38,690 bases of DNA from NCBI GenBank assembly GCA_019239415.1, contig JAFAZW010000043.1, positions 1 to 38,690 on the forward strand, in the 5' to 3' direction. The notes beneath the pieces are model-generated. The model saw only the letters and a program-made list of their open reading frames with translations. It searched no databases and was not told the DNA's origin. The position numbers were made by a program, and so were the translations under genes. Numbering within the stretch: position 1 is the stretch's first letter; every line of letters begins with the position of its first letter. Positions 1,521 to 31,661 of this stretch are shown piece after piece. The DNA is from Alphaproteobacteria bacterium. GTDB taxonomy: Bacteria > Pseudomonadota > Alphaproteobacteria > Sphingomonadales > Sphingomonadaceae.

Positions 1521-1546
1521 CCCAAAGCCTTTCCAGGAGACCTCCC

Positions 1547-2704: not shown

Positions 2705-2721
2705 GGGAAGGAAAGCCCGCC

Positions 2722-5671: not shown

Positions 5672-6664
5672 ATGGGCGTGAATATCGACAAGAGGGATGC
5701 GCGACTTGATCTCGGCGCGGTCCAGGTGCGGGCCGGCTGCGGCAACGGATGGGTTTCGGCCGACCTGGATCTCGTCGCCCTTCTCCTCGATCGCTCCGGC
5801 CGGGTGACGGACCCTTCCCGCATCGTCTTTCACAACAACGCGCGCACGCCCGACGGGACGGTGGTCTGGTCGGGCCGCGCCGTCACCGGAGAGGACCAGG
5901 AAAGTATCCTCTTCGACTTGTCGCGGCTCGATGCCCATGTCGTCGAGGTCATCGTCTGCGTCGCGGTGTTCGATCCTTCCCGCCGCCTCAACTTTGGACA
6001 GATCGAAGGCTCCTCGCTCGTTGTTTCAGACGCCGCGAGTGGACGCGAAGTCCATCGTTGCGAGCTCGGCGAGGACCATGGAACGATGAGGGCGCTCGAG
6101 GCGGTGCGGCTGATGCGCCTCGGGCGCAGCTGGCAGGTCGAGCCGCTGGGCCGGGCGCACGGCGACGGTCTCGAGCCGATCCTCGAACATTATGCTCCGG
6201 GCATCGCCGTTCGCCTCGCGAAGGACGAGTCCGCGCCGAGTCCGCCGCGATCGCGTCCTGCCGATTGCGACCCGCGCGACATCTTCGCGGAGCTGGTGAG
6301 CAGCAAACCGTTCGACGGCTATTGCTCGACAACCGAACGCCAGGCGCTGGTCCGCGAAGCCCAGCTCATCGGTCTCGATCCCGCAGGCGCCGAGATCGTG
6401 CTCGACTTCGAGCTCGAGCGGCGTCGGATCGCCAACGAGGCCGTCCTTCTCCAGCGCCTGGAGTCGATCCTCCACCAGTTTACGGACGACGACAAGAAGC
6501 TCGACGACAAGGAGCGGCGCGATGCGCTCCAGCTCGCCTGCCGTCCGGCGGGCGGGTGCAGCAAAGGTCTGCAATATGATGTCGCGGAGGACTATGTGAC
6601 ACGGTTCTGCCGCATGAACGGCGTCCGCGTGAAGGCGGGGCTGTTCAAGTGGATAGTGCCATAA
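5672..6664 (+). CDS. TerD-like domain fused to a novel acidic helical-repeat domain
   Basis: 330-aa cytoplasmic protein. Residues 1-180 resemble a TerD domain (WVSADLDLVALLLDRSGRV, FHNNARTPDG, a WQVEPLGR segment matching the TerD WKFRAVGQ strand), but the calcium-binding DFDLDAS and GDN loops are lost or altered. After a Pro-rich linker (185-197), residues 200-320 hold two copies of a short helical unit; the second contains FTDDDKKLDDKERRDAL (270-286) and VAEDYVTRFCRMNGVR (304-319) and is almost the same as one in the next gene. ATG 5672 is preferred over farther upstream starts because GAGG lies 5 nt before it. A 13-nt gap to the next gene implies co-transcription. The role is inferred from the Ter context only. 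Confidence 0.75.
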   Translation: MGVNIDKRDARLDLGAVQVRAGCGNGWVSADLDLVALLLDRSGRVTDPSRIVFHNNARTPDGTVVWSGRAVTGEDQESILFDLSRLDAHVVEVIVCVAVFDPSRRLNFGQIEGSSLVVSDAASGREVHRCELGEDHGTMRALEAVRLMRLGRSWQVEPLGRAHGDGLEPILEHYAPGIAVRLAKDESAPSPPRSRPADCDPRDIFAELVSSKPFDGYCSTTERQALVREAQLIGLDPAGAEIVLDFELERRRIANEAVLLQRLESILHQFTDDDKKLDDKERRDALQLACRPAGGCSKGLQYDVAEDYVTRFCRMNGVRVKAGLFKWIVP

Positions 6665-6677
6665 GAGGGGGCTGGCG

Positions 6678-7517: not shown

Positions 7518-7537
7518 GCGTCCCGAGGCGAGCCATT

Positions 7538-7558
7538 CGCGCCGCGGACGGCGGCGCG
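7538..7558. terminator. Hairpin between convergent genes
   Basis: CGCGCCGC (7538-7545) pairs with GCGGCGCG (7551-7558) around a 5-nt loop. It sits in the 52-nt gap between two converging stop codons, where a bidirectional transcription stop would be expected. There is no flanking T-run, so termination is inferred from position and pairing. Confidence 0.45.
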
Positions 7559-7569
7559 GGTGCGCCTCG

Positions 7570-10500
7570 TCAGACGGCCGGCGGCGGCGGCGGCACGATC
7601 TGGGGCGGCGGCGGCGGCTCCGGCGCGAAGACGACCCGCAAGGCCGGTTCGCTCGCCGCCGGCGTCCACGCGCTTCCGCCCACCGCGTTGTAAACGAGGC
7701 TCTGCTCCGAGAAGCGTCCCTGGCGGTGCATCTGGCGAAGCTCGGCAAGGCCGAACGGCCCTTCGCTCTTGCCGTCCTGCGCGACGAAGAAGGACACGGC
7801 TGCCTCCGCCGGGGGTGGCGGCGGCACTGTCGTCGCGGAGACCGTCGCAGCCGCGGGCTGCGCCCCGGCGACGGTCTTCAGCGCGTCGTCGCGAAAGGCT
7901 TCCGGGTCGAGCGTCCGCTTGTCCGTGGCTCGAAAGGCCGGCGCATCGTCGGGATCGCGGTTCGCCTCGCCATTCTCCACGTCGTTCAAGCTTCCCGCGA
8001 CCGCGAGGCTGTAGCTCTCCACATTGTCGAACAGCCGGTCGTTCATTTCGCCGAGCGCAGCTGCCGGGACCTTCGACCCCAGGCCGGCCTTGGCCTTGCG
8101 GCGGAAATCGTCGGCAAGCTTCATCGAGACCTGGAATCCCAGGCCGGTCGGACGCGTCTCGTTCCCGAAGGAATCCTGCTCCCGCGGGGGTGCGTAGCCG
8201 CGCTTGGCGTTCCACTCCGCAAGTGCCGCAAGCGCCAGCCATTGCATCGGCGTGAGCTTCGCCTCGAACGCCTCGATCAGGCTCTGGATGCGGGCGAGGT
8301 GCGAGGTCTCGAAACCCTTGGCCCGGATCTTCCGCTCGGTGCCGACCGACTGAAGGTCGAAGCGAGACATGTCGACATAATAGCGGGGGTCCTGCTCGCG
8401 ATTGTCCTCGGCCGCCAACGCCCCGCGGCGCAGCACGCCGTACATCACCCCCTTGAGAAATATCGACAAGACTTCCCGCTGCTGAGCCAATTCCTCGTTC
8501 GTCGGCACCACCGGGTTCGGGAAGCGCAGATAATCGAAATGATTGTGGAGCGGGAGCGGATCGCGCGCGGAGAGCTCCCGCTCGTACGACTTGCGCCACG
8601 CGTCGCGAAGCGGCGCGATGGCGTCGAGCGGATAGCCCGAAAGCTCGCAGTAGCAGATGATGCGGCCGCGGACCCCCGATTCCTCGATGGTCGGCGCGGA
8701 AATGCCCCGCCCTTTCGGCATCTCGTCGGCGATGACGGCCGAAAACTGATCGCGGAGCACCTGCGCGTCGGGTGCCGCGATGATCATCTTGAACTGCTCG
8801 CCGCGAGGCTGGAAGCGGTCGAACTGCGCCGGGACCCAGGGCATGGCGCGGGCGAGCATGCGCTCGATCACGCGGCGGCGCTCGTCCGGCGTGAGCGAGC
8901 GCAACGCCTCGACCGCCGAGGGAATCCGGCGCTCCTCGTCGGCAAGCTTCTCCTTCGCGATCGCGCGCAGCTGGTTGATCAGCCGGAGCCGGTCGGCGTC
9001 GTTGCGCAGCATCGGGAACATGCCGCGGCAGCCGCCGAAGTCGGTGAACTTCTCGTTCGCCCAGGTGCGCGCCTCGGTTGCCGTCCGTTCCTCGGCGATG
9101 CGGCCGGCGCCGCGGTCGATGACGATATAGACGCCGTTCTCCGGCCGGTTCACCGCGTCGCGGACGCGGTCGGCTTCCGCCGAAACCATGTCGAGGACGG
9201 CCTTTACCGAGCGGCGGCCCTCGTCGAGCTCGCGGAGCAGCCCGGTCCAGGTGACGTCCCCTTCCTCGTCCGGAGCCGAGCGCTCGCCGAGATAGTTCGC
9301 AAGATCGTCGAGCAGCTTCTGCGCCTCCACCGCCGCTGTCGCGCGCAGCCAGAACTTCAGCCCCTCGCCGAGGTCGGTCTCGAAGTGGCGCAGATATTCC
9401 TCGGCTGCGTCGCGGTCGACGCCGCCGAACAGGCGCGGCTTCGCCGCCTGCTCCAGCTTCTGCAGGGAGCGGACGAGGTGCCGGCTCATGATCTCGTCGG
9501 CGACGGCCCGGAACTTCGCCGCCGCTTCGTCGAGCTGCGCGCGAATGCCGGTGCCGTCCTTGGCGAGCTCGTCGCGAATCTGCTCGACCAGCTCGATGGT
9601 GAAGTCGAGGCCGCCATTCTCGCGGTCGTCGACGAGGTCGTAGAGCGCATGCTTCAGCGACTGCGGCCCTTCCTCGGCGGTGAGCTGACGCAGGATCCGA
9701 CCGCGCGCCGCCTCCACCTCGCCGCGGCGGATGCTGGCGGTCCCGGCGCGCGCCAGCACCTCCGCCTCATATCGTGCGCGGATCTTCTCAGCCTGCGCGG
9801 ACCAGTCCTTCGGCTCGCTCGCCTGCTCCCGCATGGCGCGCACTTCGCCGGAAATATCTTCCAGAAGACGGCCGTGGATCGACTTCATGTCGTCGCTGAC
9901 CATCAGCTGGTCGACCATCGCGTAGGCGGCGACCGCGTTCGGGCGCGGCGACAGGAATTCGGGGAAATCGTCGAACAGCTTCGGGCTGAGCAGCATTTTC
10001 GAGCGCATGAAGGCGTCGCGATCCTTGACCCCGGGATGGCGCCCGCTCGCTCCTTCGAAGACCCCGAAGAAGGCCTGCAGCATCGTCTTGCTGGCGTCGC
10101 TCAGCGCCGCCTCGTGCTCGAGCGCCCCCGTCGTCGCGACGATCGACTGGCCGATCGCCGAATAGCCCTTGGCGTAGCCGAGCACATGGCGGTCGTCGCC
10201 GGCGATCGGCGGGTGGAACATCTGCATCTTGTGCTGTTGCTGGTTCACCGCGATCGAGCGCTTCTTGCGGGCGAACTCGCTGCTGCCGAAATCCTCGAAC
10301 AGGATATCGGCGATCATGTCGTAGATATCGTCGACGCGCTCGGTGCGGTCGCCGTTGAGGTTCGCGGTATCGAACAGATAGACGTCGTTATAGGGCTTCG
10401 CGGCCGACGGCCGCTCCACGCTCGTCCAGCTGCGGGCATAAGGCGGCTGCGGGTTGGGCCGCATCACATATTCGAGTTCGCTGAGTGCCGCGAAGCCGTT

Positions 10501-11211
10501 GGCGAAGACGCGATCGCGGTTCGCGCCCGCATAGCCGCTCGGCAGCATGAGGAAGAGATCGACCTGGTCGGCGCGGGGCGAAGACATGGAGCGGATGGCA
10601 AGGCCCGCGTCGATGAAGGCGCCGGACCCCGTACCGCCCGCCAGCGATCCCACCACGACGACGCGGAGCTGGCGCTGCGTGACGATGCCGAGCCTCGCGA
10701 GCGCCTGCTGCGTGCTGACATTGTCGAGAACCGCCGCCGACTTGGCGGTCATCGCCTGCTTGAAGGCGTCGAACTGGTGGAAGAAGAGCAGCCGCGAGAT
10801 CGAGCGGACCTGGCCCGCTCCCTTCTCGGTGTCGATCGTCGAGAGATCGCGGCTCGGCAGCCACTCGGCGATCGCCGGATAATTGGCCTTGTTGTTCTGG
10901 TAGAAGCTCACGTCCACCTTGGCCTGGAGCGTGTCGCCCTTGCCGAAGGCGACCGCCTCCGCCATCGGATCGGTCGTCGCGGCGCGCCCCGTCTCGCGCG
11001 CCTCGTTCGTGTCGGTGTCGAAGTAGAGGAATCCGGCCACGGGGAATTCGGACATCGAGTTCAGGCGGGTGCCCTTCCAGTCCGCCTGGAGGATCCGCCG
11101 CCGCAGGCGGAGCAGGATTTCCATGCCCGTCCCGCCCAGGCCCACGAACACGGTGGGCCTGACCTCCACCTCCACGTTGGTCGGCGTCTGAATTGCCTGC
11201 GTCTCAGCCAC
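7570..11211 (-). CDS. Tubulin/FtsZ-like GTPase with C-terminal GYF_2-like domain
   Basis: 1213-aa protein of the bacterial tubulin-like group (Tubulin_2 type). VGLGGTGME (23-31) matches the first phosphate loop of FtsZ/tubulin, FDTDTNE (64-70) matches the nucleotide-contacting loop, and VVGSLAGGTGSGAFID (186-201) is the tubulin signature loop. A very long helical, charged middle region (about 350-1060) follows. The end holds a GYF_2-like module (about 1140-1185: FFVAQDGKSEGPFGLAELRQ, SAWTPA) and a poly-Pro tail. GTG 11211 is the start, with AGGGGA 8 nt upstream. It is the last gene of a minus-strand operon with a membrane protein, a vWA-like protein and a TerD fusion. A GTP-driven scaffold is inferred, not shown. 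Confidence 0.85.
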   Translation of the reverse strand: MAETQAIQTPTNVEVEVRPTVFVGLGGTGMEILLRLRRRILQADWKGTRLNSMSEFPVAGFLYFDTDTNEARETGRAATTDPMAEAVAFGKGDTLQAKVDVSFYQNNKANYPAIAEWLPSRDLSTIDTEKGAGQVRSISRLLFFHQFDAFKQAMTAKSAAVLDNVSTQQALARLGIVTQRQLRVVVVGSLAGGTGSGAFIDAGLAIRSMSSPRADQVDLFLMLPSGYAGANRDRVFANGFAALSELEYVMRPNPQPPYARSWTSVERPSAAKPYNDVYLFDTANLNGDRTERVDDIYDMIADILFEDFGSSEFARKKRSIAVNQQQHKMQMFHPPIAGDDRHVLGYAKGYSAIGQSIVATTGALEHEAALSDASKTMLQAFFGVFEGASGRHPGVKDRDAFMRSKMLLSPKLFDDFPEFLSPRPNAVAAYAMVDQLMVSDDMKSIHGRLLEDISGEVRAMREQASEPKDWSAQAEKIRARYEAEVLARAGTASIRRGEVEAARGRILRQLTAEEGPQSLKHALYDLVDDRENGGLDFTIELVEQIRDELAKDGTGIRAQLDEAAAKFRAVADEIMSRHLVRSLQKLEQAAKPRLFGGVDRDAAEEYLRHFETDLGEGLKFWLRATAAVEAQKLLDDLANYLGERSAPDEEGDVTWTGLLRELDEGRRSVKAVLDMVSAEADRVRDAVNRPENGVYIVIDRGAGRIAEERTATEARTWANEKFTDFGGCRGMFPMLRNDADRLRLINQLRAIAKEKLADEERRIPSAVEALRSLTPDERRRVIERMLARAMPWVPAQFDRFQPRGEQFKMIIAAPDAQVLRDQFSAVIADEMPKGRGISAPTIEESGVRGRIICYCELSGYPLDAIAPLRDAWRKSYERELSARDPLPLHNHFDYLRFPNPVVPTNEELAQQREVLSIFLKGVMYGVLRRGALAAEDNREQDPRYYVDMSRFDLQSVGTERKIRAKGFETSHLARIQSLIEAFEAKLTPMQWLALAALAEWNAKRGYAPPREQDSFGNETRPTGLGFQVSMKLADDFRRKAKAGLGSKVPAAALGEMNDRLFDNVESYSLAVAGSLNDVENGEANRDPDDAPAFRATDKRTLDPEAFRDDALKTVAGAQPAAATVSATTVPPPPPAEAAVSFFVAQDGKSEGPFGLAELRQMHRQGRFSEQSLVYNAVGGSAWTPAASEPALRVVFAPEPPPPPQIVPPPPPAV

Positions 11212-11239
11212 GATGTCGTCCCCTGCGTCTCGAATGGGC

Positions 11240-11683
<444 letters not shown>

Positions 11684-11704
11684 GATCCTGCCTCCCCCTT
11701 TGGT

Positions 11705-13213
11705 CTAGTCGTTCAACGGTGTCACCGACGGCGGACCGAACATCCGGCCCATCACCTCGGCCCGCGTCCCATAGGCATCCGCCAGCGTCCGCTTCTCGCG
11801 CGGCTTGATCCGGATCCGCTGGTCGCCTTGTCCGACGCGGACCGTATATTCGCGCGGCCGCGCGCTCATGACCAGCAGGAACAACGCGGCGGCGAGCGCG
11901 AGCGCGGCGAGCGCGATCGCCAGGATGAGCGGCCAGGGCGAATAGCGAAAGGTGATCTGGACCGGCACCTTCATCGTCGCCGACGAAATCCGCCGATAAT
12001 CGAGGAAGACTTCCGGCAGATGCGCCGCCATCGCCGCCTCGGCCTGCTCGTCGCGGATCATCTCGCCGCCGCTGATCGCCGAGATGCGGGCGACGAAGGC
12101 CGGGTCGAGCGAGAAGCGCAGATCCTGGAGCCGGACTTCCACCTCCCCGACGGCGGTCCGTTCGTCCTCGAGCAGGCCGGCAAGGCCGCCGGAGCGGGGG
12201 ACGGCCGGCAGCCGCAGCTCGAGCTGGACCGGGCCGGATTCGCCGGCGGCCTTCACATTCTCGAGCACCTGCGGCGTCATCGACGCCTGCCCGCTCCTGA
12301 GCGCCGGGTCGGCCGAGTGCCAGCCGGTGGTCAAAGCCGCGCGGGCGATGTTCTGCGGATAGTAGGTGTTGCGCACCGTGCCCTGCAACCGGACGACCGA
12401 CGGGCTCCCGCCGGGCACGCCGGAGACGATCAGCCGTCCCTTCACCACCTCGGCGGTGACGCCGGCGGCGGCGGAGGTCAGGTGAAGCTCGACGGGATCG
12501 GTCGTCAGCGGCTTCAGCTTCACGGGGGGCGCCGGAAAGAGCGCCCTCACCGGCGCGCCCGGCCTCAGGATCGCGGCCAGCGCATTCGCGCCGCGCTCCC
12601 CATAAGCGAGGGCATAGACGATCAGCCCCTTCTCGTTGAAGTGCGGGCCGGTGACGACCTTGCGCATCGGGAAGGCGGCGATGGCGGTGATATGCGGCGA
12701 CTGGCGCAGCGCGTTGTAGAAGGCGCGGGTATTCTCGACCACCGTGGGGCGGTTGTCCGGCGCGTCCTTGTTGTTGGTGACGATCCAGATCACGCCCTCG
12801 CGGCCGCGCATGATCCGCGAGAAGGTGCCGGTGAGGGCGCCCTTGAAATCCGCATCGGCATAGGCGCCGGACGGCTTCCTGGGCAGGTCGATCCGGGCGA
12901 GGGCGGCGGCGATCGCGCCGGCGTCGTACGGGCCGTCGAACATCACCTCGGGCGAGGTCCGGCCCGGTACCTGTCCCTCCTGGTTGAAGGCGGCGACGAC
13001 GACCGGAACTCCCTGGAGGTTGGCCTTGCCGATGAGCGAGCCGACGAAGGCGCGAAGCGGCGACTTCGGATCGAGGTAGAATGGCTCCATCCATCCCGAA
13101 TTCTGGATGAGGAACACCTGCTCGACCGCGCCCGCCCCCCCGCTCGCGGGCGCGGGCGCCGCCAGGACGAACGCCGCGATCAGCGAGAGGAAGAAAGACG
13201 CCAGCTTGCGCAT
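11705..13213 (-). CDS. Periplasmic vWA-like protein with C-terminal membrane anchor
   Basis: 502 aa. A signal peptide (about 1-23, ending in APAPAS) is followed by a von Willebrand A-like fold: VFLIQNSGWMEPFY (33-46), then VPVVVAAFN and GREGVIWIVTNNKDAPDN. The metal-binding MIDAS is degenerate: the usual D-x-S-G-S reads Q-N-S-G-W, and the later TDG reads TNN, so metal-dependent ligand binding is doubtful. A beta-rich middle leads to one membrane helix (about 420-440: WPLILAIALAALALAAALFLL without break) and a basic cytosolic tail of about 60 residues. It overlaps the end of the upstream TerD fusion gene by 34 nt, implying coupled translation. It may link periplasm to the tubulin-like protein; this is inferred. 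Confidence 0.8.
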   Translation of the reverse strand: MRKLASFFLSLIAAFVLAAPAPASGGAGAVEQVFLIQNSGWMEPFYLDPKSPLRAFVGSLIGKANLQGVPVVVAAFNQEGQVPGRTSPEVMFDGPYDAGAIAAALARIDLPRKPSGAYADADFKGALTGTFSRIMRGREGVIWIVTNNKDAPDNRPTVVENTRAFYNALRQSPHITAIAAFPMRKVVTGPHFNEKGLIVYALAYGERGANALAAILRPGAPVRALFPAPPVKLKPLTTDPVELHLTSAAAGVTAEVVKGRLIVSGVPGGSPSVVRLQGTVRNTYYPQNIARAALTTGWHSADPALRSGQASMTPQVLENVKAAGESGPVQLELRLPAVPRSGGLAGLLEDERTAVGEVEVRLQDLRFSLDPAFVARISAISGGEMIRDEQAEAAMAAHLPEVFLDYRRISSATMKVPVQITFRYSPWPLILAIALAALALAAALFLLVMSARPREYTVRVGQGDQRIRIKPREKRTLADAYGTRAEVMGRMFGPPSVTPLND

Positions 13214-15309: not shown

Positions 15310-15396
15310 CTCTACCCTGCTCCAGCCCCTTTCGCCCGCCGCGTCGGGCACGAGGCACCCGGCGCGTGCATCTGATGGACGGCTAGTCGCCGCGCG

Positions 15397-15414: not shown

Positions 15415-15450
15415 TCCCGACCCCCCGCCGCCAGGCTCAAGCGCCGTCGC

Positions 15451-15496
15451 GGCAACGGAAAAAACGGTTGCCTATCGACTCCCGCCTGCCTTAGCT
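15451..15496 (+). promoter_or_regulatory. Inverted repeat 2 overlapping the presumed promoter of the TerD operon
   Basis: GGCAAC (15451-15456) and GTTGCC (15467-15472) form an inverted repeat around GGAAAAAACG. Its right arm overlaps a -35-like TTGCCT (15468-15473), which is followed after exactly 17 nt by a weak -10-like TTAGCT (15491-15496). Transcription would then start about 15 nt before the ATG at 15518, with the ribosome site AGGGGAG between. The geometry fits repression at the promoter; the promoter call is weak because the -10 is poor. Confidence 0.4.
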
Positions 15497-15517
15497 TCGC
15501 GCCTACAGGGGAGATCC

Positions 15518-16099
15518 ATGGTCAGCTTAGTCAAGGGGCAGTCGGTCAGGCTGGACAAGATCGCCGACGCGGGTCTCAGGCGGGTCACGATGGGGCTCGG
15601 CTGGGACGTGCGGCAGTCGAGAGGCTTTCTCGGGCTGTTCGGCGGCGGCGGAGGCGATATCGATCTCGACGCCTCCTGCCTGCTGTTCGACGCGACCGGG
15701 GCGCTCGTCGATGCCGTCTGGTTCCAGCAATTGCAGAGCAACGACGGCAGCATCGTCCACACCGGCGACAACCGGACCGGCGCGGGCGAAGGCGACGACG
15801 AACAGATCATGGTGGACCTGCAGCGGCTTCCGGCGAACGTCACCACGCTCGTCTTCACGGTCAACAGCTTCACCGGCGACAGCTTCGACCGCATCGAGAA
15901 CGCCTATTGCCGGCTGGTCGACCAGGCGGGCGACCGCGAGCTTGCCCGCTTCGACCTCACCGGCAGCGGGTCCCACACCGGCCAGGTCATGGCGAAAGTG
16001 TCGCGGCGCGACGGCGGCTGGGAGATGACGGCCATCGGCGACCGGACGAACGGCCGGACCTTCCACGACATGATGCCCGCGATCGTCTCGCATCTCTGA
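15518..16099 (+). CDS. TerD-family calcium-binding protein
   Basis: 193-aa soluble TerD-type protein, first gene of the nine-gene plus-strand Ter operon. MVSLVKGQSVRLDK opens the domain; DIDLDAS (47-53) and [13 protein letters not shown] (83-95) are the two acidic calcium-binding segments of active TerD domains. It has a Gly-rich insertion (RGFLGLFGGGGG, about 35-46) between the first strands, as in the longer TerZ/TerX-type members, and its C-terminal strand is divergent (WEMTAIGDRTNG instead of [10 protein letters not shown]). ATG 15518 follows AGGGGAG. Family proteins are linked to tellurite, phage and stress resistance and thought to act near membranes with TerC. The exact role here is unknown. 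Confidence 0.9.
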   Translation: MVSLVKGQSVRLDKIADAGLRRVTMGLGWDVRQSRGFLGLFGGGGGDIDLDASCLLFDATGALVDAVWFQQLQSNDGSIVHTGDNRTGAGEGDDEQIMVDLQRLPANVTTLVFTVNSFTGDSFDRIENAYCRLVDQAGDRELARFDLTGSGSHTGQVMAKVSRRDGGWEMTAIGDRTNGRTFHDMMPAIVSHL

Positions 16100-16116
16100 C
16101 TGCCGGGGCGCTGCCG

Positions 16117-17289
16117 ATGGACCTGACAATGGGCGGCAATGCCCCGGTCGGCGGGGGCTCTGTCGCGGTGACCCTGTCCGCGCCGGGCGGGCGCCTCCGC
16201 GGGTACGAATGCTCCGCATATCTCCTCGGCGCCGGCGGCAAGGTCCGCGGCGACCGCGACATGATCTTCTACAACCAGGCGGTCAGTGCCGACGGCGCCC
16301 TCCGCCTGAGCTCGAGCGAGGGCGAGGCCCGGTTCGAGGTCGCCCTCGATTCGATCGACGCCGCGGTCGAGCGCATCGTCTTCTGCGTCACGACGGATCC
16401 GTCGGGCGGCCGGAGGACCGTTGCCGAGGCGGACGGCCTTGCCATGGCGATCGCGCGGGAGGGAGTTTCGCTGTGCCGCTTCGCTCCCGATCTCGCGTAC
16501 GCCTCCGAAGCGGCGCTGATGCTCGGCGAGCTGTACCGGCGGGCCGGGTCCTGGAAGTTCAGGGCCGTCGGACAGGGGTTCAACGGCGGCCTCGCACCGC
16601 TGGCGCGGTCGTTCGGCATCGACGTCGCGGACGACCCGCCGCCGGCACCCGCCGTCCCCCCTCCGCCTCCGCCGCCAGGGGCCGCGCCGGCGCGGGTGAA
16701 TCTTGCCAAGGTGACCCTCGACAAGAAGGGGCAATCGGTCAGCCTCGAGAAACGCGGCGCCTCTTACGGCGAGATCCTGGTCAACCTGAACTGGTCGAGG
16801 GGACGGAGGGGCTTTTTCGGCGGCGGCGCGATCGACCTCGACCTGGGCTGTCTGTGGGAGCTCGCCGACGGCGACCGCGGCGTCGTCCAGGCGCTCGGGC
16901 GCGACTTCGGCGACTATGCGCTGCCGCCCTTCATCCGGCTCGACGGCGACGACCGCACGGGCGATGCGGCCGGGGGCGAGAATCTGCGGATCAATGGTGC
17001 CGAGTGGGCGAGGATCAAGCGCGTCGCCGTCTTCGCCACCATCTACGAGGGCGTGCCGAACTGGCGCGAGACGGACGGGATCGTCACCGTCACGCTCCCG
17101 GACCAGCCGCAGATCGAGGTGCGGATGACCGAGGGCCGCAATGATCGCGCCCTGTGCGCGGTCGTGCTGCTCGAAAATATCGGCGGGACGCTGCGGGCGA
17201 CCCGGATCGTCGACTATTACCGGGGACAGAGCGAGCTTGACCGCGCCTACGGGTGGGGCATGCGTTGGGTCCCGGGCCGGAAGGATTGA
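16117..17289 (+). CDS. Two-domain TerD/TerA-like protein
   Basis: 390 aa, two TerD-type domains joined by a poly-Pro linker (about 173-192). The first (1-170) keeps the fold signature ([28 protein letters not shown]) but lacks the calcium loops: the DLDAS strand reads ECSAYLL and the GDN loop is gone. The second (about 193-390) is TerA-like, with VTLDKKGQSVSLEK, AIDLDLGCLWE (238-248) and GDDRTGDAAGGE (277-288), so it probably still binds calcium. The start ATG is 17 nt after the preceding TerD gene, and the next gene follows by 11 nt. One protein thus pairs a degenerate and a competent domain, which suggests a bridging function; inferred. Confidence 0.87.
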   Translation: MDLTMGGNAPVGGGSVAVTLSAPGGRLRGYECSAYLLGAGGKVRGDRDMIFYNQAVSADGALRLSSSEGEARFEVALDSIDAAVERIVFCVTTDPSGGRRTVAEADGLAMAIAREGVSLCRFAPDLAYASEAALMLGELYRRAGSWKFRAVGQGFNGGLAPLARSFGIDVADDPPPAPAVPPPPPPPGAAPARVNLAKVTLDKKGQSVSLEKRGASYGEILVNLNWSRGRRGFFGGGAIDLDLGCLWELADGDRGVVQALGRDFGDYALPPFIRLDGDDRTGDAAGGENLRINGAEWARIKRVAVFATIYEGVPNWRETDGIVTVTLPDQPQIEVRMTEGRNDRALCAVVLLENIGGTLRATRIVDYYRGQSELDRAYGWGMRWVPGRKD

Positions 17290-17300
17290 AGGGGAACAGG

Positions 17301-18404
17301 ATGCTTAGCCATTTCAAAGGGGCAGTCGTCTTCACTGCGATCTGCCTCGCCCTCGCGGCCTGGCTCGGGTGGGGCCTGACGCACTCCGCTGCCGGGACCG
17401 CGGGCGTCGTCTGGATCGTCATCGTCCTGGGGGTGCTGGAAGTCTCGCTCTCGTTCGACAACGCCGTCGTCAACGCCGCCGTCCTCAAGGACATGCCCCC
17501 CATCTGGCGGAAGCGGTTCCTGACCTGGGGCATGGTCATCGCCGTGTTCGGCATGCGGGTCGTGTTTCCCCTCGCCATCGTGGCGATCGCCGCCAGGCTC
17601 GGCCCCCTTGCCGCCGTCGAGCTCGCCGCCGAGAAACCGGCCGAGTATGAGCGGATCATCACGTCCGCGCACGTTGGGATCTCCGGGTTCGGAGGAACCT
17701 TCCTCGCCATGGTCGGCCTCACCTACTTCTTCGACCAGGACAAGGAAGTTCACTGGATCGGCTTCGTCGAGCGATGGCTGGCGAGGATGGCCGCCGTCGA
17801 GGCAATTCAGATCGGCATCGTCCTCCTCGCCGTTTACGGAGTGTCGCTCCTCCTGCCGCCGGACGACGCGTTCACGCTGCTCAAGGCGGGGATCTTCGGG
17901 CTCCTCGCCTTCCTCGTGGTGGAAGCGATCAGCTCCGTCCTCGAACCGGAGGACGGATCGGGCATCGTCGTTCGCGCCGGGATCGGCGGCTTCCTGTACC
18001 TGAACATGCTCGATTCCGCCTTCTCCTTCGACGGCGTCATCGGCGCGTTCGCGCTTTCCAACAACATCTTCATCATCGCGCTCGGCCTCGGGATCGGCGC
18101 CATGTTCGTCCGGTCGATGACCGTCCTCCTGGTGGAGCGAGGCACGCTTTCGGAATATCGCTATCTCGAGCACGGCGCATTCTGGGCGATCCTCATTCTG
18201 TCGGCGATCATGCTGCTTTCCTCCCGCTTCGAGATTCCGGAGGTCGTCACCGGGTTTATCGGCGCGGTCCTGATCGGGCTGTCTCTCTGGGGTTCCGCCC
18301 GGTACAACCGGATCAACGGCAATCAGGACGCCGCCGAGGACGGGGGCGTCGCGCCCGACGGGAGCGTCGTCGAAGGAACCGGAGCGGCCGGAGGAGCCTC
18401 ATGA
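17301..18404 (+). CDS. TerC-related DUF475 integral membrane protein
   Basis: 367 aa polytopic membrane protein of the DUF475 branch of the TerC superfamily. About nine hydrophobic helices are visible. Helix-borne acidic motifs typical of TerC occur twice: [18 protein letters not shown] (about 46-63) and [18 protein letters not shown] (about 236-253), each with Asp that could coordinate a metal ion in the membrane. TerC proteins are thought to move or sense divalent metals (Mn, Ca) and to bind TerD proteins at the membrane. ATG 17301 is preferred, next to GGGGAACAGG. Its stop overlaps the ATG of the next terD gene (ATGA), so the two are translationally coupled. The soluble C-terminus (about 335-367) is low complexity. 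Confidence 0.92.
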
Positions 18405-18979
18405 GCATCAGCCTGGCAAAAGGCGGCAATATCAGCCTTTCGAAGGAGGAGCCCGGCCTCAGGAACGTGCTCGTCGGCCTCGGCTGGGACGCGCGCGAGA
18501 GCGATGGCGCGGACTTCGACCTGGACGCCAGCGCATTCCTGCTGACCGCGGCGGGAAAGGTCCGCAGTGACGGCGACTTCATCTTCTACAACCAGCTGCG
18601 CTCGCCGGAGGGGTCGGTGGAGCATACCGGGGACAATCTCACCGGCTCCGGCGACGGCGACGACGAAGCGATCAAGGTCGACCTGACGAGGATTCCGCCG
18701 GACGTCGAGCGCCTCGCCTTCGCCGTCACCATCCATGAGGCCGTCGCCAGGCGCCAGAATTTCGGGATGGTTCGCAACGCCTACATCCGCATCGTCAACA
18801 GCGACAGCGACCGCGAGGTGGCGCGATACGATCTCGGCGAGGATTATTCCACGGAGACGGCGCTCATCTTCGGCGAGGTCTATCGGTACGGCGGCGACTG
18901 GAAGTTCCGTGCCGTGGGCCAGGGGTTTCAGGGTGGACTGGCCGCGCTCGCGCGCGGCTTCGGCGTCGACGTCGGTTGA
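18401..18979 (+). CDS. terD: TerD-family calcium-binding protein (canonical)
   Basis: 192-aa canonical Ter[21 protein letters not shown] starts the fold; DFDLDAS (38-44) and [13 protein letters not shown] (77-89) are the calcium sites; [20 protein letters not shown] and [20 protein letters not shown] are fully conserved family segments. The start overlaps the stop of the DUF475/TerC gene by ATGA, which supports a TerC-TerD complex made in step. A second canonical copy follows 16 nt later and is about two-thirds identical by eye, so a local duplication is likely. Confidence 0.95.
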
Positions 18980-18995
18980 ACAAGGGAGCAGGAAT

Positions 18996-19571
18996 GTGGC
19001 GGTATCTCTGACCAAAGGCGCCAATGTCAGCCTGTCGAAGGAGGCGCCCGGCCTCCACACGGTCCAGGTCGGCCTCGGCTGGGACCAGCGCGTCTCCGAC
19101 GGCAGCGAGTTCGACCTCGACGCCAGCGTGTTCATCCTGACCGAGGCGGGCCGGGTTCGCTCCGATGCCGACTTCGTGTTCTACAACAATCTGGAGGGCG
19201 CCGGCGGCGCGGTCGTCCATCAGGGCGACAACCGCACCGGCGCGGGCGAGGGGGACGACGAGTCGGTCGTGGTCTCGCTCGACCGGCTGCCGCCCGATGT
19301 GGCGAAGCTGAGCTTTGCCGTGACCATTCATGAAGCGGACTCCCGCCGGCAGAATTTCGGCATGGTGACCAACGCCTTCATCCGCATCGTCAACGCGACC
19401 GGCGGGAGCGAAATCGCCCGCTACGACCTGTCGGAAGACGCCTCCACCGAAACCGCGATGATCTTCGGCGAGCTCTACCGCCACGGCTCGGAATGGAAGT
19501 TCCGCGCCGTCGGCCAGGGATTCAACGGCGGCCTCGGCCCCCTTGCCCGTTCGTTCGGCGTGAACGTGTGA
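18996..19571 (+). CDS. terD: TerD-family calcium-binding protein (second canonical copy)
   Basis: 191-aa TerD paralogue of the preceding gene with the same layout: FDLDAS (39-44), [13 protein letters not shown] (77-89), [20 protein letters not shown] and a [20 protein letters not shown] end. The start is GTG 18996, since the overlapping ATG at 18994 is in another frame and GGGAGCAGGA lies just upstream. It is followed after 33 nt by the PRTase gene, the first biosynthetic enzyme. Having two near-equal copies could allow mixed oligomers or higher dose; which applies is not visible. Confidence 0.94.
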
Positions 19572-19604
19572 CGCTCGAGGCCTGCACCGGGTCTGGAGGA
19601 TGAG

Positions 19605-20705
19605 GTGACGGGCTGCGACAGCCTGAGCTTCGCCCTTTCCGGCGGCACGATCACCTTCGACATCGGCGCGGCCGCGCCCGGCTGGTCGTTCGACCGGCTC
19701 TGCGCAGTCGGCGAGCGCGACAACCCGCGCCGCCCCTTCCTGATCGTCTCGCGCGTGCTCGGTCGCCACATCCCGGCGCCGCCGTCCGATACGCGCCGGG
19801 CCATGCGGGACCTTGCCGCGCAGATTCCGGCCGATTTGCCCCAGCCGACGCTCGTCGTCGGGCTTGCCGAGACGGCGGTGTGCATCGGCCACGGCGTGTA
19901 TGAGGAGCTCGTCCGGCGCGGGATCGAGGGCTGCTATCTGCACACCACGCGCCAACGCGGCGACGCGCCCCTGCTGTGCCGGTTCGAGGAGCCGCACAGC
20001 CACGCCTCCTCGCACCTCGTGTACCGCCCGCATTTCGATCTGGCGGCGTTCCGATCGCTCGTTCTCGTCGACGACGAGGTCTCGACCGGCACCACCCTCG
20101 CCAATCTGGAGGACGCGCTCCTCTCGTCCCTGCCGCGGGTGGAGCGGGTCGTGATAGCGGCACTGACGGACTGGAGCGGCCGCGGCGAAGCGGGAAGCCC
20201 CAGCGTCGCGCTTCTCACCGGCCGCGCGCGCTGGACGCCGGACCCGGCCTCAGCCGATGCGGCTGCCTCCTTTCCCGAGCGCGCCGAGGCCGGGTTCGGC
20301 CGGCTGGCCTCGCCACCGCGCCACGCCCGGCGCGGGGTCTCGCGGCCGGACGACCTCCCCGGTTTCGACCGGCGCCGCCTCGCCCTCCCGAAGGATCGGG
20401 CGATCCGGGTGGTCGGCACCGGCGAGTTCACCTATCCGCCCTTCCTGCTGGCGGAGGCCCTCGAGGCGGACGGGCGGGACGTCGTGGTCCAGGCGACGAG
20501 CCGCAGCCCGGCGCGCGTCGGCGGCGCGCTCAGGTCGAAGCTCTGCTTCGCCGACAATTACGGCGCCGGCGTGCCCAATTATCTCTACAACGCAGGAAAC
20601 GAGGGTGAGGAGCGGATTGCCCTCCTGTGCTGCGAGACGGGCCGGGGCAGCCTCGACCCGACGCTGGTCCGCGCCCTCGCCGCCGTCCCGGTCGCCTTCG
20701 CCTGA
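19605..20705 (+). CDS. Ter-type phosphoribosyltransferase with TRSP domain
   Basis: 366-aa two-domain enzyme. The N-terminal half is a type-I phosphoribosyltransferase: VLVDDEVSTGTT (153-164) is the PRPP-binding loop. The C-terminal part (about 255-366) is a TRSP domain, with TGEFTYPPFLLAEALE, the namesake ATSRSP and FADNYGAGVPNYLYN. Enzymes of this architecture occur with TerD/TerC genes and are proposed to build a nucleoside-like metabolite from PRPP; no product has been identified that I know of. GTG 19605 is chosen because GGAGG stands just upstream and the neighbouring ATG at 19600 runs into a stop. Three nt separate it from the HAD gene. Confidence 0.87.
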   Translation: MTGCDSLSFALSGGTITFDIGAAAPGWSFDRLCAVGERDNPRRPFLIVSRVLGRHIPAPPSDTRRAMRDLAAQIPADLPQPTLVVGLAETAVCIGHGVYEELVRRGIEGCYLHTTRQRGDAPLLCRFEEPHSHASSHLVYRPHFDLAAFRSLVLVDDEVSTGTTLANLEDALLSSLPRVERVVIAALTDWSGRGEAGSPSVALLTGRARWTPDPASADAAASFPERAEAGFGRLASPPRHARRGVSRPDDLPGFDRRRLALPKDRAIRVVGTGEFTYPPFLLAEALEADGRDVVVQATSRSPARVGGALRSKLCFADNYGAGVPNYLYNAGNEGEERIALLCCETGRGSLDPTLVRALAAVPVAFA

Positions 20706-20708
20706 CCG

Positions 20709-21443
20709 ATGCGCGCGATCGTTCTCGCCGATCTCGACGACACGTTGTTTCAGTCGCGGAGAAAGTGCCCCCCCGACATTCCCGAGGGCCGGCTCCGCTC
20801 CATCGCCGTCGATGCGGACGGCAAGCCGGTCGGCTTCGCGACGCCGCGGCAGTCGGCCCTGCTGCGCTGGCTCTCCGAGGGGGCGTGCGTGGTTCCGGTA
20901 ACCGCCCGAAGCCGCGCCGGACTCGAACGCGTCTCCCTGTCCTGGCGGTACGCGGTCTGCGCGCACGGCGGCATCATCCTGGAAGACGGCCGGCCGTGGC
21001 CTGCGTGGGAGCGCAGGATGACCGACGCCGCCGCCGGGTGCCGAGGCGCATTCGACGACCTCGAAGAACGGCTGGCCCAGGCCGGCAACCAGGATCTGCG
21101 CATCACCCGCATCGGCGGGCCGTCGCCGCTGTTCCTCCTCGCCAAGCACGGGCGGAGGGATGACGAAGCGCTCGCCGCCGTCGCCGCCGCGCTGACACCG
21201 GCGCTGCCGGAGGGTTGGCGCGCGTCGCTCAACGGGAACAACCTGGCGCTGCTGCCGGCGCATATCCGCAAGGAAGCCGCGGTCGCCGCGCTGCTGCCGC
21301 GGCTGCGGGAACAGTGGCCGGACGCCCCCATCGTCGGGCTGGGCGACAGCTGCAGCGATGCCGCCTTCCTCCGCCTCTGCGACGTCGCCGCGATGCCGAG
21401 CCGCTCGCAACTGGCGCGCGCGGCGCTCGGAACCGCGCCGTGA
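20709..21443 (+). CDS. HAD-superfamily phosphatase of the Ter biosynthetic set
   Basis: 244 aa HAD hydrolase. Motif I ADLDDTLFQ has the nucleophile Asp8 and general acid Asp10; motif II lies at VPVTARS; the later Lys is in the HIRKEAAV region; motif IV GLGDSCSD supplies the magnesium-binding acids. The cap is of the Cof/sucrose-phosphatase type, judging by length. It probably removes a phosphate from the product of the flanking phosphoribosyltransferases; the substrate is inferred. It starts 3 nt after the PRTase-TRSP gene and its TGA overlaps the GTG of the next gene. Confidence 0.88.
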   Translation: MRAIVLADLDDTLFQSRRKCPPDIPEGRLRSIAVDADGKPVGFATPRQSALLRWLSEGACVVPVTARSRAGLERVSLSWRYAVCAHGGIILEDGRPWPAWERRMTDAAAGCRGAFDDLEERLAQAGNQDLRITRIGGPSPLFLLAKHGRRDDEALAAVAAALTPALPEGWRASLNGNNLALLPAHIRKEAAVAALLPRLREQWPDAPIVGLGDSCSDAAFLRLCDVAAMPSRSQLARAALGTAP

Positions 21444-22531
21444 GCGCCGGCTTCTCCGGCAGCTATGCTGCGGAAGACGTCACGTTCCTCCTCAAGCCCG
21501 TGACGATGGCGGCGACGGGCGTCGCCGAGAAGGAACGGCTGATCCAGACGGGCCGACGCCATTATTCCGAGATGATCTCGATCGAACCTCCTCCCGACGA
21601 GGAGCATCTGCGCCTCTACCGCGAGGCGCTGGCACGCAACGGCGCGCGGCTCGCAGCGGACGTCGCAACGCTCGCGCGCCTGCTCGCGGAGGCGGTTCCG
21701 GCGCCGCGCGAGGTCGTGCTGCTCTCACTGGCGCGGGCGGGGACTCCGATCGGCGTCCTGCTGCGCCGCGCCCTGCTCCGCCAGGGACGGCGCGCCGCCC
21801 ACTATTCGATCAGCATCGTCCGCGACCGGGGGATCGACCGGACCGCCCTCGCTCACGTCGCGCGCCGCCACGCCGCGGCGGACGCGGTGTTCGTCGACGG
21901 ATGGACGGGCAAGGGTGCGATCGCCGCGGAGCTGCGCGCCAGCCTCGCCGCCTGCACGCTGGGCTTCCGCCCGCGCCTCGCGGTCATTACCGACCCCGCG
22001 GGGCGCGCGGACTACGCCGCCGGCAACGACGACTATCTGATCCCCTGCGCGCTCCTGAACGCCGTCGGCTCGGGCCTCGTCAGCAGGACGATCCTCAACG
22101 CTTCGGTGGTCGGGAAAGGCGAGTTCCACGCGTGCCTCTATTATGACCATTATACAGGCCGCGACCTCAGCCGGGACTTCGTGGATGCGGTGGATGGCCT
22201 TGCCGCCTCGATCAGGCCTGGCCCGGAAGGCCCTGCCGTCGAGCCCGACGGCGCGCGCACGCGGTGCGATGCTTTCATCGCGGCGCTTCTCGCAACGGAG
22301 GGGCTTAAGGATGCCAATCTCGTGAAGCCGGGTATCGCCGAATCGACCCGCGCGCTGCTGCGCCGCGTCCCCATGAAGCTCTTCGTGCGCGATCCTGCGG
22401 ATCCCGACGTGCACCATCTGTTGCGGCTCGCCCGGCTCAAGCGCGTCGGGCTGGCCTCGCTCCCGGCGAGCGCGCCGTTTCGCGCGGTCGTCCTCATCCG
22501 CAGCCTCGGCGCGAAGGAGCGCGCGGCGTGA
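21440..22531 (+). CDS. StiP-type PRTase-like protein with C-terminal PELOTA domain
   Basis: 363 aa. The N-terminal two-thirds match the family annotated as cysteine protease StiP and interpreted by comparative genomics as a phosphoribosyltransferase: SGSYAAEDVTFLLKP at the start, HYSEMISIE (about 42-50), LARAGTPIGVLLRR, HYSISIVRDRGID and VFVDGWTGKGAI (a PRPP-loop-like strand). The last 80 residues, from ANLVKPGIAESTRALLRR on, fit the PELOTA RNA-binding domain that is normally fused here. GTG 21440 overlaps the upstream stop by GTGA. Protease versus transferase activity cannot be settled from sequence; the context favours a transferase acting with the PRTase-TRSP and HAD proteins. Confidence 0.87.
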   Translation: MSAGFSGSYAAEDVTFLLKPVTMAATGVAEKERLIQTGRRHYSEMISIEPPPDEEHLRLYREALARNGARLAADVATLARLLAEAVPAPREVVLLSLARAGTPIGVLLRRALLRQGRRAAHYSISIVRDRGIDRTALAHVARRHAAADAVFVDGWTGKGAIAAELRASLAACTLGFRPRLAVITDPAGRADYAAGNDDYLIPCALLNAVGSGLVSRTILNASVVGKGEFHACLYYDHYTGRDLSRDFVDAVDGLAASIRPGPEGPAVEPDGARTRCDAFIAALLATEGLKDANLVKPGIAESTRALLRRVPMKLFVRDPADPDVHHLLRLARLKRVGLASLPASAPFRAVVLIRSLGAKERAA

Positions 22532-23436
22532 TCGATCCGCTTTCGCTCGGCGCCACGCTCTATCTGCCCGCCGTGCGGCCGCGGCTCGCCGAAACGCTGG
22601 CGCTTCGCCCTATTCCGCAGCTTCGCTCCGCGGTCGTCTGCCTCGAGGACGCGGTGCGCGACGTCGATCTTCCCGATGCATTGGCAGGCGTCGCACGGCT
22701 CCTCCTTGCCCTCGCTGCGGAAGCCGCGCCGCGTCCCCGCCTGTTCCTCCGGCCACGCGACGCGGCGATGCTGGCGCGGCTCCTGGAGCTGCCGGGCATC
22801 GAACATGTCGACGGATTCGTTCTTCCCAAGGCGACCGTGGCGCGGTTCGAGGCCTTCGTCGAGCGGATCGAGGGGCGGCACCACGTCCTCATGCCGACGC
22901 TGGAGACCGCCGACGTCTTCGAGCCCGACGCCCTCCGTCGGCTCCGCGAGGCCTTCTGCAAAGCCCGCGAACGGGTCTTGCTGGTGAGGATCGGCGGGAA
23001 CGATCTGCTCCAGACCCTCGGCACGCGCCGGTCGCGGCACCGCACCGTCTACGACGGTCCTCTCGGCCCCACGATCGCCGCGATCGTCACGACCATGCGG
23101 CCGCAGGGTCTTCACCTGTCGGCGCCGGTCTTCGAGCATTACAGCCGTCCCGCGCTGTTGCGCGAAGAGGTGGAGCGAGACCTCGAGTTCGGCCTCTTCT
23201 CCAAGACGGCCATCCATCCGCTCCAGGTTCAGGTGATACAGGATGCCTACGCCGTCACGGCTTCCGAACTGGCGGCCGCGGAAGAGATCTTGGCCAAGAC
23301 CGGTCCGGCCGTGTTCGGCGACGAGGGCTCGATGGTGGAGCCGGCGACGCACCGTGAATGGGCAACGGCCATCCGGCGCCGCGCCGATTATTTCGGGGTT
23401 CGCTCCGACGGAACCGCGGCCCGGGCGGCCCGCTAG
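22528..23436 (+). CDS. CitE/HpcH-like C-C bond lyase of the Ter biosynthetic set
   Basis: 302-aa TIM-barrel aldolase/citrate-lyase-beta relative. VVCLEDAVRD (36-45) carries the Glu-Asp pair; RPRLFLRPRD, FVLPKATVARFE and LMPTLETADVF are barrel strands with the metal and substrate ligands; SKTAIHPLQVQVIQDAY is the usual C-terminal CitE motif. In Ter systems this enzyme accompanies the two PRTases, the HAD protein and an ATP-grasp ligase; the ATP-grasp gene is not here. GTG 22528 overlaps the previous stop. It is the last gene of the operon, and its TAG overlaps the TAG of the convergent next gene by 4 nt (CTAG). Confidence 0.87.
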   Translation: MIDPLSLGATLYLPAVRPRLAETLALRPIPQLRSAVVCLEDAVRDVDLPDALAGVARLLLALAAEAAPRPRLFLRPRDAAMLARLLELPGIEHVDGFVLPKATVARFEAFVERIEGRHHVLMPTLETADVFEPDALRRLREAFCKARERVLLVRIGGNDLLQTLGTRRSRHRTVYDGPLGPTIAAIVTTMRPQGLHLSAPVFEHYSRPALLREEVERDLEFGLFSKTAIHPLQVQVIQDAYAVTASELAAAEEILAKTGPAVFGDEGSMVEPATHREWATAIRRRADYFGVRSDGTAARAAR

Positions 23437-31519: not shown

Positions 31520-31527
31520 GGGCATCG

Positions 31528-31658: not shown

Positions 31659-31661
31659 ACA

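What the first reader, a model, noticed from the sequence alone, without database searches (positions are those of the whole stretch)
5672..23436. A Ter locus built around a tubulin/FtsZ-like GTPase
Seen: divergent operons join a 1213-aa protein with GLGGTG, FDTDTNE and GGTGSG loops, a vWA-like periplasmic protein, a three-helix membrane protein and a TerD-propeller fusion to a full TerD/TerC plus biosynthetic operon. Known: TerD-TerC and PRTase/HAD/CitE sets occur together. Inference: calcium-binding TerD proteins report to, or dock on, a membrane-attached GTP-driven filament or scaffold, with the nucleoside-like metabolite as signal or weapon. I know of no experimental account of such a machine.
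Basis: partly seen in the sequence, partly recalled or inferred. Interest (0 to 1): 0.9.

Follow-up and report, generated by a model that had tools for sequence, protein, structure and literature searches.

The report
Ter stress operon wired to tubulin-like GTPase
A bacterial stress-response gene cluster (Ter) sits beside, and shares fused genes with, a predicted tubulin-like membrane machine; a similar pairing, apparently assembled separately, occurs in relatives of a purple sulfur bacterium, which suggests that some Ter systems drive a cytoskeleton-like effector.

Summary
A 1213-aa Tubulin_2 protein ends a four-gene minus-strand operon (TerD::beta-propeller, vWA-like, 3-TM, tubulin) facing a standard Ter operon (TerD, DUF475, PRTase, StiP, lyase). 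The AlphaFold model matches tubulin, TubZ, CetZ and FtsZ structures. The tubulin part is FtsZl1, described in 2010; most copies have no Ter gene nearby (TerD in the fetched flanks of 2 of 80 loci), and Ter loci of the same family lack FtsZl1. What is unusual is the joining. In Chromatiales a full Ter system shares a contig with the same FtsZl1 operon in two genomes, and TerD is the next gene after FtsZl1 in 4 of 4. Trees of FtsZl1 and of StiP each need at least two origins of the pairing. In the window TerD is fused in frame to the module's propeller, and another TerD to a rare TerB-like domain. I found no paper on the link, but the main Ter survey was not readable. The calcium-docking idea is weak: the fused TerD lacks the acidic clusters of calcium-binding TerD. 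Best reading: a Ter sensing system that uses an FtsZl1 membrane machine as effector. Mechanism untested.

The parts
5672..6664 (+). TerD domain fused to a TerB-like acidic-motif domain (330 aa)
   Evidence: TerD 7.9e-29; residues 197-330 are 46% identical to a zinc-ribbon-motif::TerB-like protein beside FtsZl1 in Massilia L094
6678..7517 (+). TerB-like domain, one TM helix, C-terminal domain (279 aa)
   Evidence: 54% identical to L094:16393-17265 downstream of FtsZl1; no Pfam family over its cut-off and no PDB relative; TM 137-155. 'TerB-like' is my motif reading; the profile match to real TerB is weak
7570..11211 (-). FtsZl1 / Tubulin_2 protein with C-terminal GYF_2 domain (1213 aa)
   Evidence: Pfam 2.5e-57; AF2 of residues 1-1110, mean pLDDT 82.8; Foldseek tubulin, TubZ, CetZ, FtsZ
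11240..11683 (-). three-helix membrane protein (147 aa)
   Evidence: hydropathy peaks 53-71, 98-116, 122-140; family F3 called in 68 of 80 loci
11705..13213 (-). vWA-like protein, signal-like N-terminus and C-terminal TM (502 aa)
   Evidence: family F1 called in 78 of 80 loci; Q[N/D]SG[W/Y]M-type motif in 75 of 78; weak alignment to an FtsZl1-linked vWA; TM
13180..15351 (-). TerD domain (about 1-190), Ala/Pro-rich linker, beta-propeller (about 364-723)
   Evidence: TerD 5.5e-19, 1.4e-16 to 2kxt; AF2 and Foldseek; one open frame, but internal start codons at residues 188-303
15518..16099 (+). TerD
   Evidence: 3.5e-47, start
16117..17289 (+). TerD-family protein with two matched stretches
   Evidence: 8.2e-37, start
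17301..18404 (+). DUF475 / TerC-family membrane protein
   Evidence: DUF475 1.5e-104, TerC 3.5e-17
18401..18979 (+). TerD, both acidic clusters kept
   Evidence: 1.7e-87; 5.7e-85 to 2kxt; alignment
18963..19571 (+). TerD, both acidic clusters kept (start unsettled)
   Evidence: 2.7e-82; alignment
19605..20705 (+). PRTase_2 plus TRSP
   Evidence: 2.6e-55, 3.5e-14
20709..21443 (+). HAD-like protein
   Evidence: no Pfam match at 0.01; homologue in each of seven other Ter loci
21443..22531 (+). StiP plus PELOTA (start unsettled)
   Evidence: 4.9e-93, 3.6e-21
22528..23436 (+). C-C_Bond_Lyase (CitE-like)
   Evidence: 8.8e-86

Best explanation
The locus is a composite of two modules that usually live apart: a Ter stress-response system and a proteobacterial FtsZl1 module (propeller, vWA-like protein, 3-TM protein, tubulin-like protein). 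Shown: both modules, the tubulin fold, the domain fusions as open frames, and the same pairing in a second class with separate histories. Inferred: the propeller and TerD are cytosolic, the vWA-like bulk lies outside the inner membrane, and TerD and TerB-like domains act as adaptors that plug the FtsZl1 machine into the Ter complex at the membrane. On a Ter signal (metal, or the nucleoside-like product of the PRTase/HAD/StiP/lyase set) the complex recruits or releases FtsZl1, whose GTP-dependent assembly on the vWA-like/TM anchor reshapes or reinforces the envelope, as a protective response to membrane attack such as phage or xenobiotics. FtsZl1 would then be an effector of Ter, in the place where other Ter systems are thought to use TelA/TerF-type sub-membrane proteins.
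For: FtsZl1 operon in the same order in 60 of 80 loci, and a discrete present/absent six-gene unit in Janthinobacterium. In G1090 TerB, TerY, PP2C, kinase and four TerD genes are followed on the same strand by propeller, vWA-like, TM, FtsZl1 and TerD; G1121 has the same arrangement and DUF475. TerD starts 3 bp after FtsZl1 in two genomes. At least two origins of the pairing on the FtsZl1 tree and on the StiP tree. TerD and propeller in one open frame inside the FtsZl1 operon. TerB-like pair next to FtsZl1 in the window and in Massilia L094, elsewhere in one more FtsZl1 genome, and at full length in 0 of 298 other phylum genomes. Tubulin fold. Ter described as sensing and sub-membrane system: passage in PMC7824862. 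Ter genes change cell shape: abstract of PMC4633105.
Against: 78 of 80 FtsZl1 loci show no TerD in the fetched flanks, though only 53 of 80 had both full 10-kb flanks; six alphaproteobacterial FtsZl1 genomes lack TerD, so the machine does not need Ter. The four Chromatiales copies are one clade, so the independent events number two, not five; only 2 of the 4 show Ter and FtsZl1 on one contig. The fused TerD lacks the acidic clusters. In the linker GC at codon position 3 does not exceed position 1 and internal start codons exist, so separate translation of the propeller is not excluded. Tubulin TM-scores are modest (target-normalised 0.32-0.49 in the 50 rows shown), and T6-H7 elements could not be placed in FtsZl1 by its describers (PMC2875224). 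No test of GTPase, filament, interaction or phenotype.
Confidence: 0.45

Rival explanations
1. Two independent stress or defence cassettes landed side by side in islands; the neighbourhood reflects shared mobility, and domains were shuffled locally without a joint function.
For: The FtsZl1 operon behaves as an insertable unit; FtsZl1 genes lie on plasmids beside BrxL, methyltransferase, HEPN or caspase genes in other taxa; most copies are Ter-free; seven Ter loci of the same family stand in genomes without Tubulin_2.
Against: A TerD domain in one frame with the operon's first gene, a TerD gene 3 bp after FtsZl1 in two Chromatiales genomes, and two separate origins of the pairing.
Confidence: 0.3
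2. TerD and TerB-like domains are generic interaction or ligand-binding modules, interchangeable with zinc ribbons on FtsZl1 accessory proteins; the FtsZl1 machine borrows them but answers to its own signal, not to the Ter operon.
For: The gene after FtsZl1 is a zinc-ribbon-motif protein in many Oxalobacteraceae and zinc-ribbon-motif::TerD in Thiodictyon; further downstream in Massilia L094 comes zinc-ribbon-motif::TerB-like; the window has TerD::TerB-like (the zinc-ribbon Pfam scores are below cut-off). The fused TerD has lost its acidic clusters.
Against: Whole Ter operons adjoin in both lineages, not only single domains.
Confidence: 0.2
3. One reading: calcium-loaded TerD docks directly on a GTP-driven filament, with the metabolite as weapon.
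For: Three of the window's TerD genes keep both acidic clusters and could bind calcium.
Against: The TerD physically tied to the module is one that lost them; nothing that I saw points to a weapon.
Confidence: 0.05

Closest known systems
FtsZl1 system of Makarova and Koonin 2010 (PMC2875224; Pfam Tubulin_2)
   Same: Tubulin-like N-terminal domain, long mostly helical remainder, operon with a vWA-type gene and membrane proteins; predicted membrane remodelling.
   Different: Here the vWA-like family lacks the strict D-x-S-G-S motif (0 of 78), a beta-propeller gene leads the operon, and Ter genes are attached; that paper's main text has no occurrence of 'TerD' or 'tellurite'.
Ter stress-response systems (TerD, TerC/DUF475, TerB, TerY-P, PRTase/HAD/StiP/lyase)
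   Same: Same gene order as seven Ter loci of the same family (L020 without a lyase hit, some loci with extra genes).
   Different: Four-gene FtsZl1 operon divergent from it, plus TerD joined to a propeller and to a TerB-like domain.
Tubulin-containing GAP1-N2 conflict systems (Kaur et al. 2020, PMC7159879, passages seen)
   Same: Tubulin domain with helical or coiled-coil tail plus vWA and membrane proteins, read as a conflict system.
   Different: Those are described in firmicutes and actinobacteria with GTPase genes; the window genes scanned show no such GTPase, and the passages seen do not name Ter as a partner.

Membership tests
FtsZl1 / Tubulin_2 | Tubulin_2 profile match over the curated cut-off | tested here: met
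   195.2 bits against a cut-off of 27
FtsZl1 / Tubulin_2 | Tubulin/FtsZ fold | tested here: met
   AF2 pLDDT 82.8; the 50 Foldseek rows shown are, by title and length, tubulin, TubZ, CetZ or FtsZ chains, E 2.9e-5 to 2.2e-4, prob 1.00
FtsZl1 / Tubulin_2 | Glycine loops of the nucleotide site (T1, T4) | tested here: met
   AGGTG[SA]G in 80 of 80 relatives, GGTGM in at least 74 of 80
FtsZl1 / Tubulin_2 | Partner vWA gene | tested here: inconclusive
   family conserved next door, but the vWA fold is only weakly indicated
FtsZl1 / Tubulin_2 | GTP hydrolysis and polymer formation | not testable with these tools
   needs purified protein
Ter system | TerD genes with a TerC/DUF475 membrane protein | tested here: met
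Ter system | PRTase/HAD/StiP/lyase biosynthetic set | tested here: met
   and order shared with other Ter loci; HAD by homology only
Ter system | TerY-P triad (TerY, PP2C, kinase); an optional part, as I recall | tested here: not met
   no such domain in the window genes scanned; present in the Chromatiales locus
Ter system | Calcium-binding acidic clusters in TerD | tested here: inconclusive
   kept in three window TerD genes, lost in the propeller fusion; binding not tested
TerB | TerB profile match | tested here: not met
   5672-6664 and 6678-7517 have no TerB hit; hhalign to real TerB probability 1.9%, E 0.026 over 25 columns
Known anti-phage systems (PADLOC) | match to a PADLOC model | tested here: not met
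   0 families for the 10 proteins given, at E 0.1

The most novel reading that the evidence does not exclude
Some bacteria carry a Ter system whose effector is a GTP-driven tubulin-like membrane cytoskeleton: TerD and TerB-like adaptors tether FtsZl1 to the Ter membrane complex, and a Ter signal triggers its assembly to remodel or seal the envelope under attack. Alpha- and gammaproteobacteria built this coupling separately.
Probability: 0.35. Interest if true: 0.85.

Novelty: new variant of a known kind. Interest (0 to 1): 0.63.

Why it matters
Ter operons are linked in print to tellurite resistance, phage inhibition, colicin resistance and cell-shape change (abstracts of PMC8123226 and PMC4633105) without, to my knowledge, an agreed mechanism; FtsZl1 proteins occur in many phyla, and the listings I saw show no biochemical account of one (25 of 255 papers listed). 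A locus that physically joins the two gives each a testable partner: the TerD fusions name which FtsZl1 component to pull on, and FtsZl1 offers Ter a concrete membrane-acting effector.

Tried and rejected
Ter link in Janthinobacterium: a DUF475/TerD/TerD group about 20 kb from FtsZl1 looked like a link, but the same flanks and the same Ter group stand in G1037 without the FtsZl1 unit there, so it is chromosomal background. Five weak Tubulin_2 hits with open frames of 524-535 aa in the order (four over the cut-off) were taken for ordinary FtsZ and not counted as FtsZl1. Many class-level hits match only the C-terminal GYF-like tail and were dropped. TerB identity of the acidic-motif domain not upheld. 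Viral contigs gave no relative of FtsZl1 or of the TerB-like protein, and plasmids none of the TerB-like protein. Plasmids: none of seven inspected FtsZl1 regions has an annotated TerD, but much of L190 and L193 is annotated only as hypothetical. No shared k-mer of 10 or more between the two upstream regions, promoter- and terminator-like sites at chance level, no Rfam match. The script read only part of the loci, so its zero count was void and was redone. In one search one row (16134-16685) was translated out of frame and was not used. A tblastn of the zinc-ribbon family F5 against the Janthinobacterium TerB-like cassette found nothing at 1e-3; their likeness is by eye only.
Full report
Observation. 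The window is one whole contig (G000:C92, 38,690 bp) of a 3.49-Mb genome. The minus strand from 15351 to 7570 holds four tightly spaced genes: TerD::propeller, a 502-aa vWA-like protein, a 147-aa three-helix protein and a 1213-aa Tubulin_2 protein. About 166 bp away, divergent, starts a nine-gene Ter operon: TerD, TerD-like fusion, DUF475/TerC, TerD, TerD, PRTase_2+TRSP, HAD-like, StiP+PELOTA, C-C bond lyase. Two plus-strand genes, TerD::TerB-like and TerB-like-TM, run tail to tail into the tubulin gene. No PADLOC model matches the ten proteins scanned.

The tubulin. Pfam Tubulin_2 scores 2.5e-57. A model of residues 1-1110, made with 22 relatives, has mean pLDDT 82.8. The 50 Foldseek rows shown are, by title and length, tubulin, TubZ, CetZ or FtsZ chains; best E 2.9e-5, prob 1.00, target TM 0.32-0.49. 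A sequence profile of three members finds no FtsZ in the PDB at E 1; only the C-terminal domain matches, to a gliding-motility protein. AGGTG[SA]G stands in 80 of 80 relatives and GGTGM in at least 74. This is FtsZl1 of Makarova and Koonin 2010, who predicted a membrane-remodelling machine with vWA and membrane proteins and could not confidently identify T6-H7 elements (PMC2875224, parts 1 and 2 of 5 read; no 'TerD' or 'tellurite' in the main text).

The FtsZl1 module. A scan of GTDB genome contigs found 131 relatives and kept the best 80 loci. Gene families called around them by my own script: FtsZl1 in 80, vWA-like 78, TM 68, propeller 64, zinc-ribbon-motif protein F5 56, small lipoprotein-like F9 24 loci (two Methylobacteriaceae propellers fell into another cluster). 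Propeller, vWA-like, TM, FtsZl1 stand in that order on one strand in 60 of 80; several of the rest are truncated contigs. In Janthinobacterium the six genes are a discrete unit, present in G1047, G1026 and G1029 and absent between the same flanks in G1037. The vWA-like family keeps the Q[N/D]SG[W/Y]M-type motif in 75 of 78 and D-x-S-G-S in 0 of 78. Aligned to a true vWA from a Thermus FtsZl1 operon it lines up the expected strands, but with E 0.14 and probability 0.4%. So 'vWA' is plausible, not shown.

How often Ter is near. TerD in the fetched flanks: 2 of 80 loci, both Thiodictyon; 53 of 80 had both full 10-kb flanks. Of the genomes of 50 of these 80 loci, 30 have TerD somewhere. Of 11 further FtsZl1-bearing genomes, 3 have TerD, none near. 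In the window's order, 3 of 296 genomes have strong Tubulin_2 (five more weak) and 9 of 296 have TerD; only the window's genome has both. Seven fetched Ter loci of the same family show the same Ter order in genomes without Tubulin_2. Thus each module is usually alone.

The second lineage. In the order of Thiodictyon, 7 of 99 genomes have Tubulin_2. G1090 holds on one contig the biosynthetic set, then divergent from it TerB, TerY, PP2C, kinase, TerD, TerD fusion, TerD, TerD, an unscanned 342-aa ORF, two proteins with an N-terminal CPxCG motif and an FGE-sulfatase domain, then propeller, vWA-like, TM, FtsZl1, TerD. Pfam: TerB 3.1e-23, TerY_C 3.7e-50, PP2C 3.9e-41, kinase 6.8e-9, FGE-sulfatase 1.8e-55 and 1.1e-54. 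G1121 has the same arrangement on one 6.84-Mb contig, by BLAST homology to G1090, with DUF475 between Ter and FtsZl1. In G1025 and G1051 Ter and FtsZl1 lie on separate short contigs; in G1025 the Ter contig stops about 120 bp after the last TerD, so linkage there is likely, not shown. TerD is the next gene after FtsZl1 in 4 of 4 (G1025, G1051, G1090, G1121), with 3-bp gaps in G1121 and G1025; three of these carry an N-terminal CxxC...CPFCG motif, the fourth has an unsettled start. The other four Tubulin_2 genes of G1121 have no TerD in the 16-kb stretches fetched.

Separate origins. On an FtsZl1 tree of 87 rows the Ter-linked label (5 rows) needs two changes and starred branches force two (window with Aureimonas and Methylobacteriaceae, 99; the four Chromatiales rows, 100); the method was quick, SH-aLRT only, with several long branches, the window's among them. 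On a StiP tree of 13 rows the window falls with same-family Ter loci that lack FtsZl1, the Chromatiales apart (100/99), and 0 of 200 bootstrap trees allow one change; some branches there are long too. So both modules have their own local history, and the pairing arose at least twice.

Domain wiring. The window's propeller protein has about 310 residues before the shared domain; 53 of 64 relatives have 57-82 (two have none, nine have 88-268, starts unsettled), and no relative matches TerD there. The extra part is a TerD domain (1.4e-16 to 2kxt) plus an Ala/Pro-rich linker. The model (mean pLDDT 72.1, linker mostly under 50) matches TerD (3ibz 4.4e-11; the first row, 9a6r_B, is an integrative model) and, with E from about 4e-7, proteins that I know as beta-propellers. 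The frame is open throughout, but in the linker third-position GC does not exceed first-position GC, and start codons lie at residues 188-303, so a second, shorter product is possible. Relative to 2kxt the fused TerD has lost DFDLD and GDGDDE (that these hold the calcium is recalled). The other TerD, 5672-6664, is fused to a TerB-like domain; its neighbour 6678-7517 is 54% identical to a protein beside FtsZl1 in Massilia YIM B02769, where a zinc-ribbon-motif::TerB-like gene precedes it. At full length this protein was seen in the window's genome only among 299 phylum genomes (two others matched its C-terminal part) and in 2 of 58 FtsZl1-bearing genomes, in one of them away from FtsZl1. It is not demonstrably TerB.

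Mechanism. Shown: anatomy, fold, recurrence. Inferred: propeller and TerD in the cytosol (zinc-ribbon motifs, no evident signal), vWA-like bulk outside with a short tail inside, 3-TM protein as anchor, FtsZl1 assembling on them, TerD/TerB-like domains as adaptors to the Ter complex. A review passage describes Ter as sensing domains, a nucleoside-type signal and sub-membrane structures that block entry (PMC7824862, passages); Ter genes alter cell shape (PMC4633105, abstract). FtsZl1-vWA pairs near BrxL on Thermus-group plasmids, two of three also with methyltransferase-type genes and one with HEPN_Swt1, and tubulin-vWA conflict systems (PMC7159879, passages), lean towards defence. Chance: with one Ter locus and one FtsZl1 in 3.49 Mb, adjacency within 10 kb has odds near 0.6% (my arithmetic, one pair chosen after the fact).

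Literature. Searches for FtsZ-tubulin/von Willebrand, TerD/tubulin/TerC, Tubulin_2/TerD, Ter-dependent stress response, FtsZl1, tellurium resistance/FtsZ-like and terZABCDE listed no paper that I recognised as describing a Ter-FtsZl1 link; for most papers only the listing was seen. The 2012 Ter survey is not held, so priority is not settled.

Noticed in passing
window 24109-27474 (-): 1121-aa RTX repeat protein with cadherin-like domains next to the Ter operon; it would bind calcium outside the cell (inference).
   Followed up: no
window 102-4275 and 4382-5047 (+): Outer-membrane efflux protein, HlyD-type adaptor and MFS pump operon, then a beta-barrel protein.
   Followed up: no
window 29228-38015 (+): Aromatic-degradation-like cluster: a salicylyl-CoA 5-hydroxylase-type enzyme, MarR, enoyl-CoA hydratase, acyl-CoA dehydrogenase and AMP-binding genes.
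   Followed up: no
L188, L189, L191 (Meiothermus, Thermus, Allomeiothermus plasmids): vWA-FtsZl1-unknown trio beside BrxL in all three; L188 and L191 also list methyltransferase-type genes, L188 also HEPN_Swt1/DUF499: a possible FtsZl1-bearing defence island. A 2026 BREX survey does not use the word tubulin in its main text.
   Followed up: partly
L187 (Azospirillum sp. TSA2s plasmid p2): FtsZl1 operon flanked by caspase-family and OmpA genes.
   Followed up: no
G1121 (L223-L227): Five Tubulin_2 genes in one Chromatiales genome; only one is next to Ter.
   Followed up: partly
L228:1046-2311 and 3278-4375: Two proteins with an N-terminal CPxCG motif and an FGE-sulfatase domain between the Ter operon and the FtsZl1 operon.
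   Followed up: partly
L203 (Janthinobacterium sp. K2E3, C1): Zinc-ribbon-motif::TerB-like, TerB-like-TM and a third protein with a CPFCG motif form a cassette away from FtsZl1.
   Followed up: partly
FtsZl1 neighbours across L064-L143: CPxCG motifs recur near the N-termini of several FtsZl1 neighbours (37 of 64 propellers hold CPxCG), like a shared docking tag.
   Followed up: partly
window 7570-11211, C-terminus: GYF_2-like tail resembles a domain of gliding-motility proteins (7z3c; GltJ model matched below cut-off by the L071 protein).
   Followed up: no
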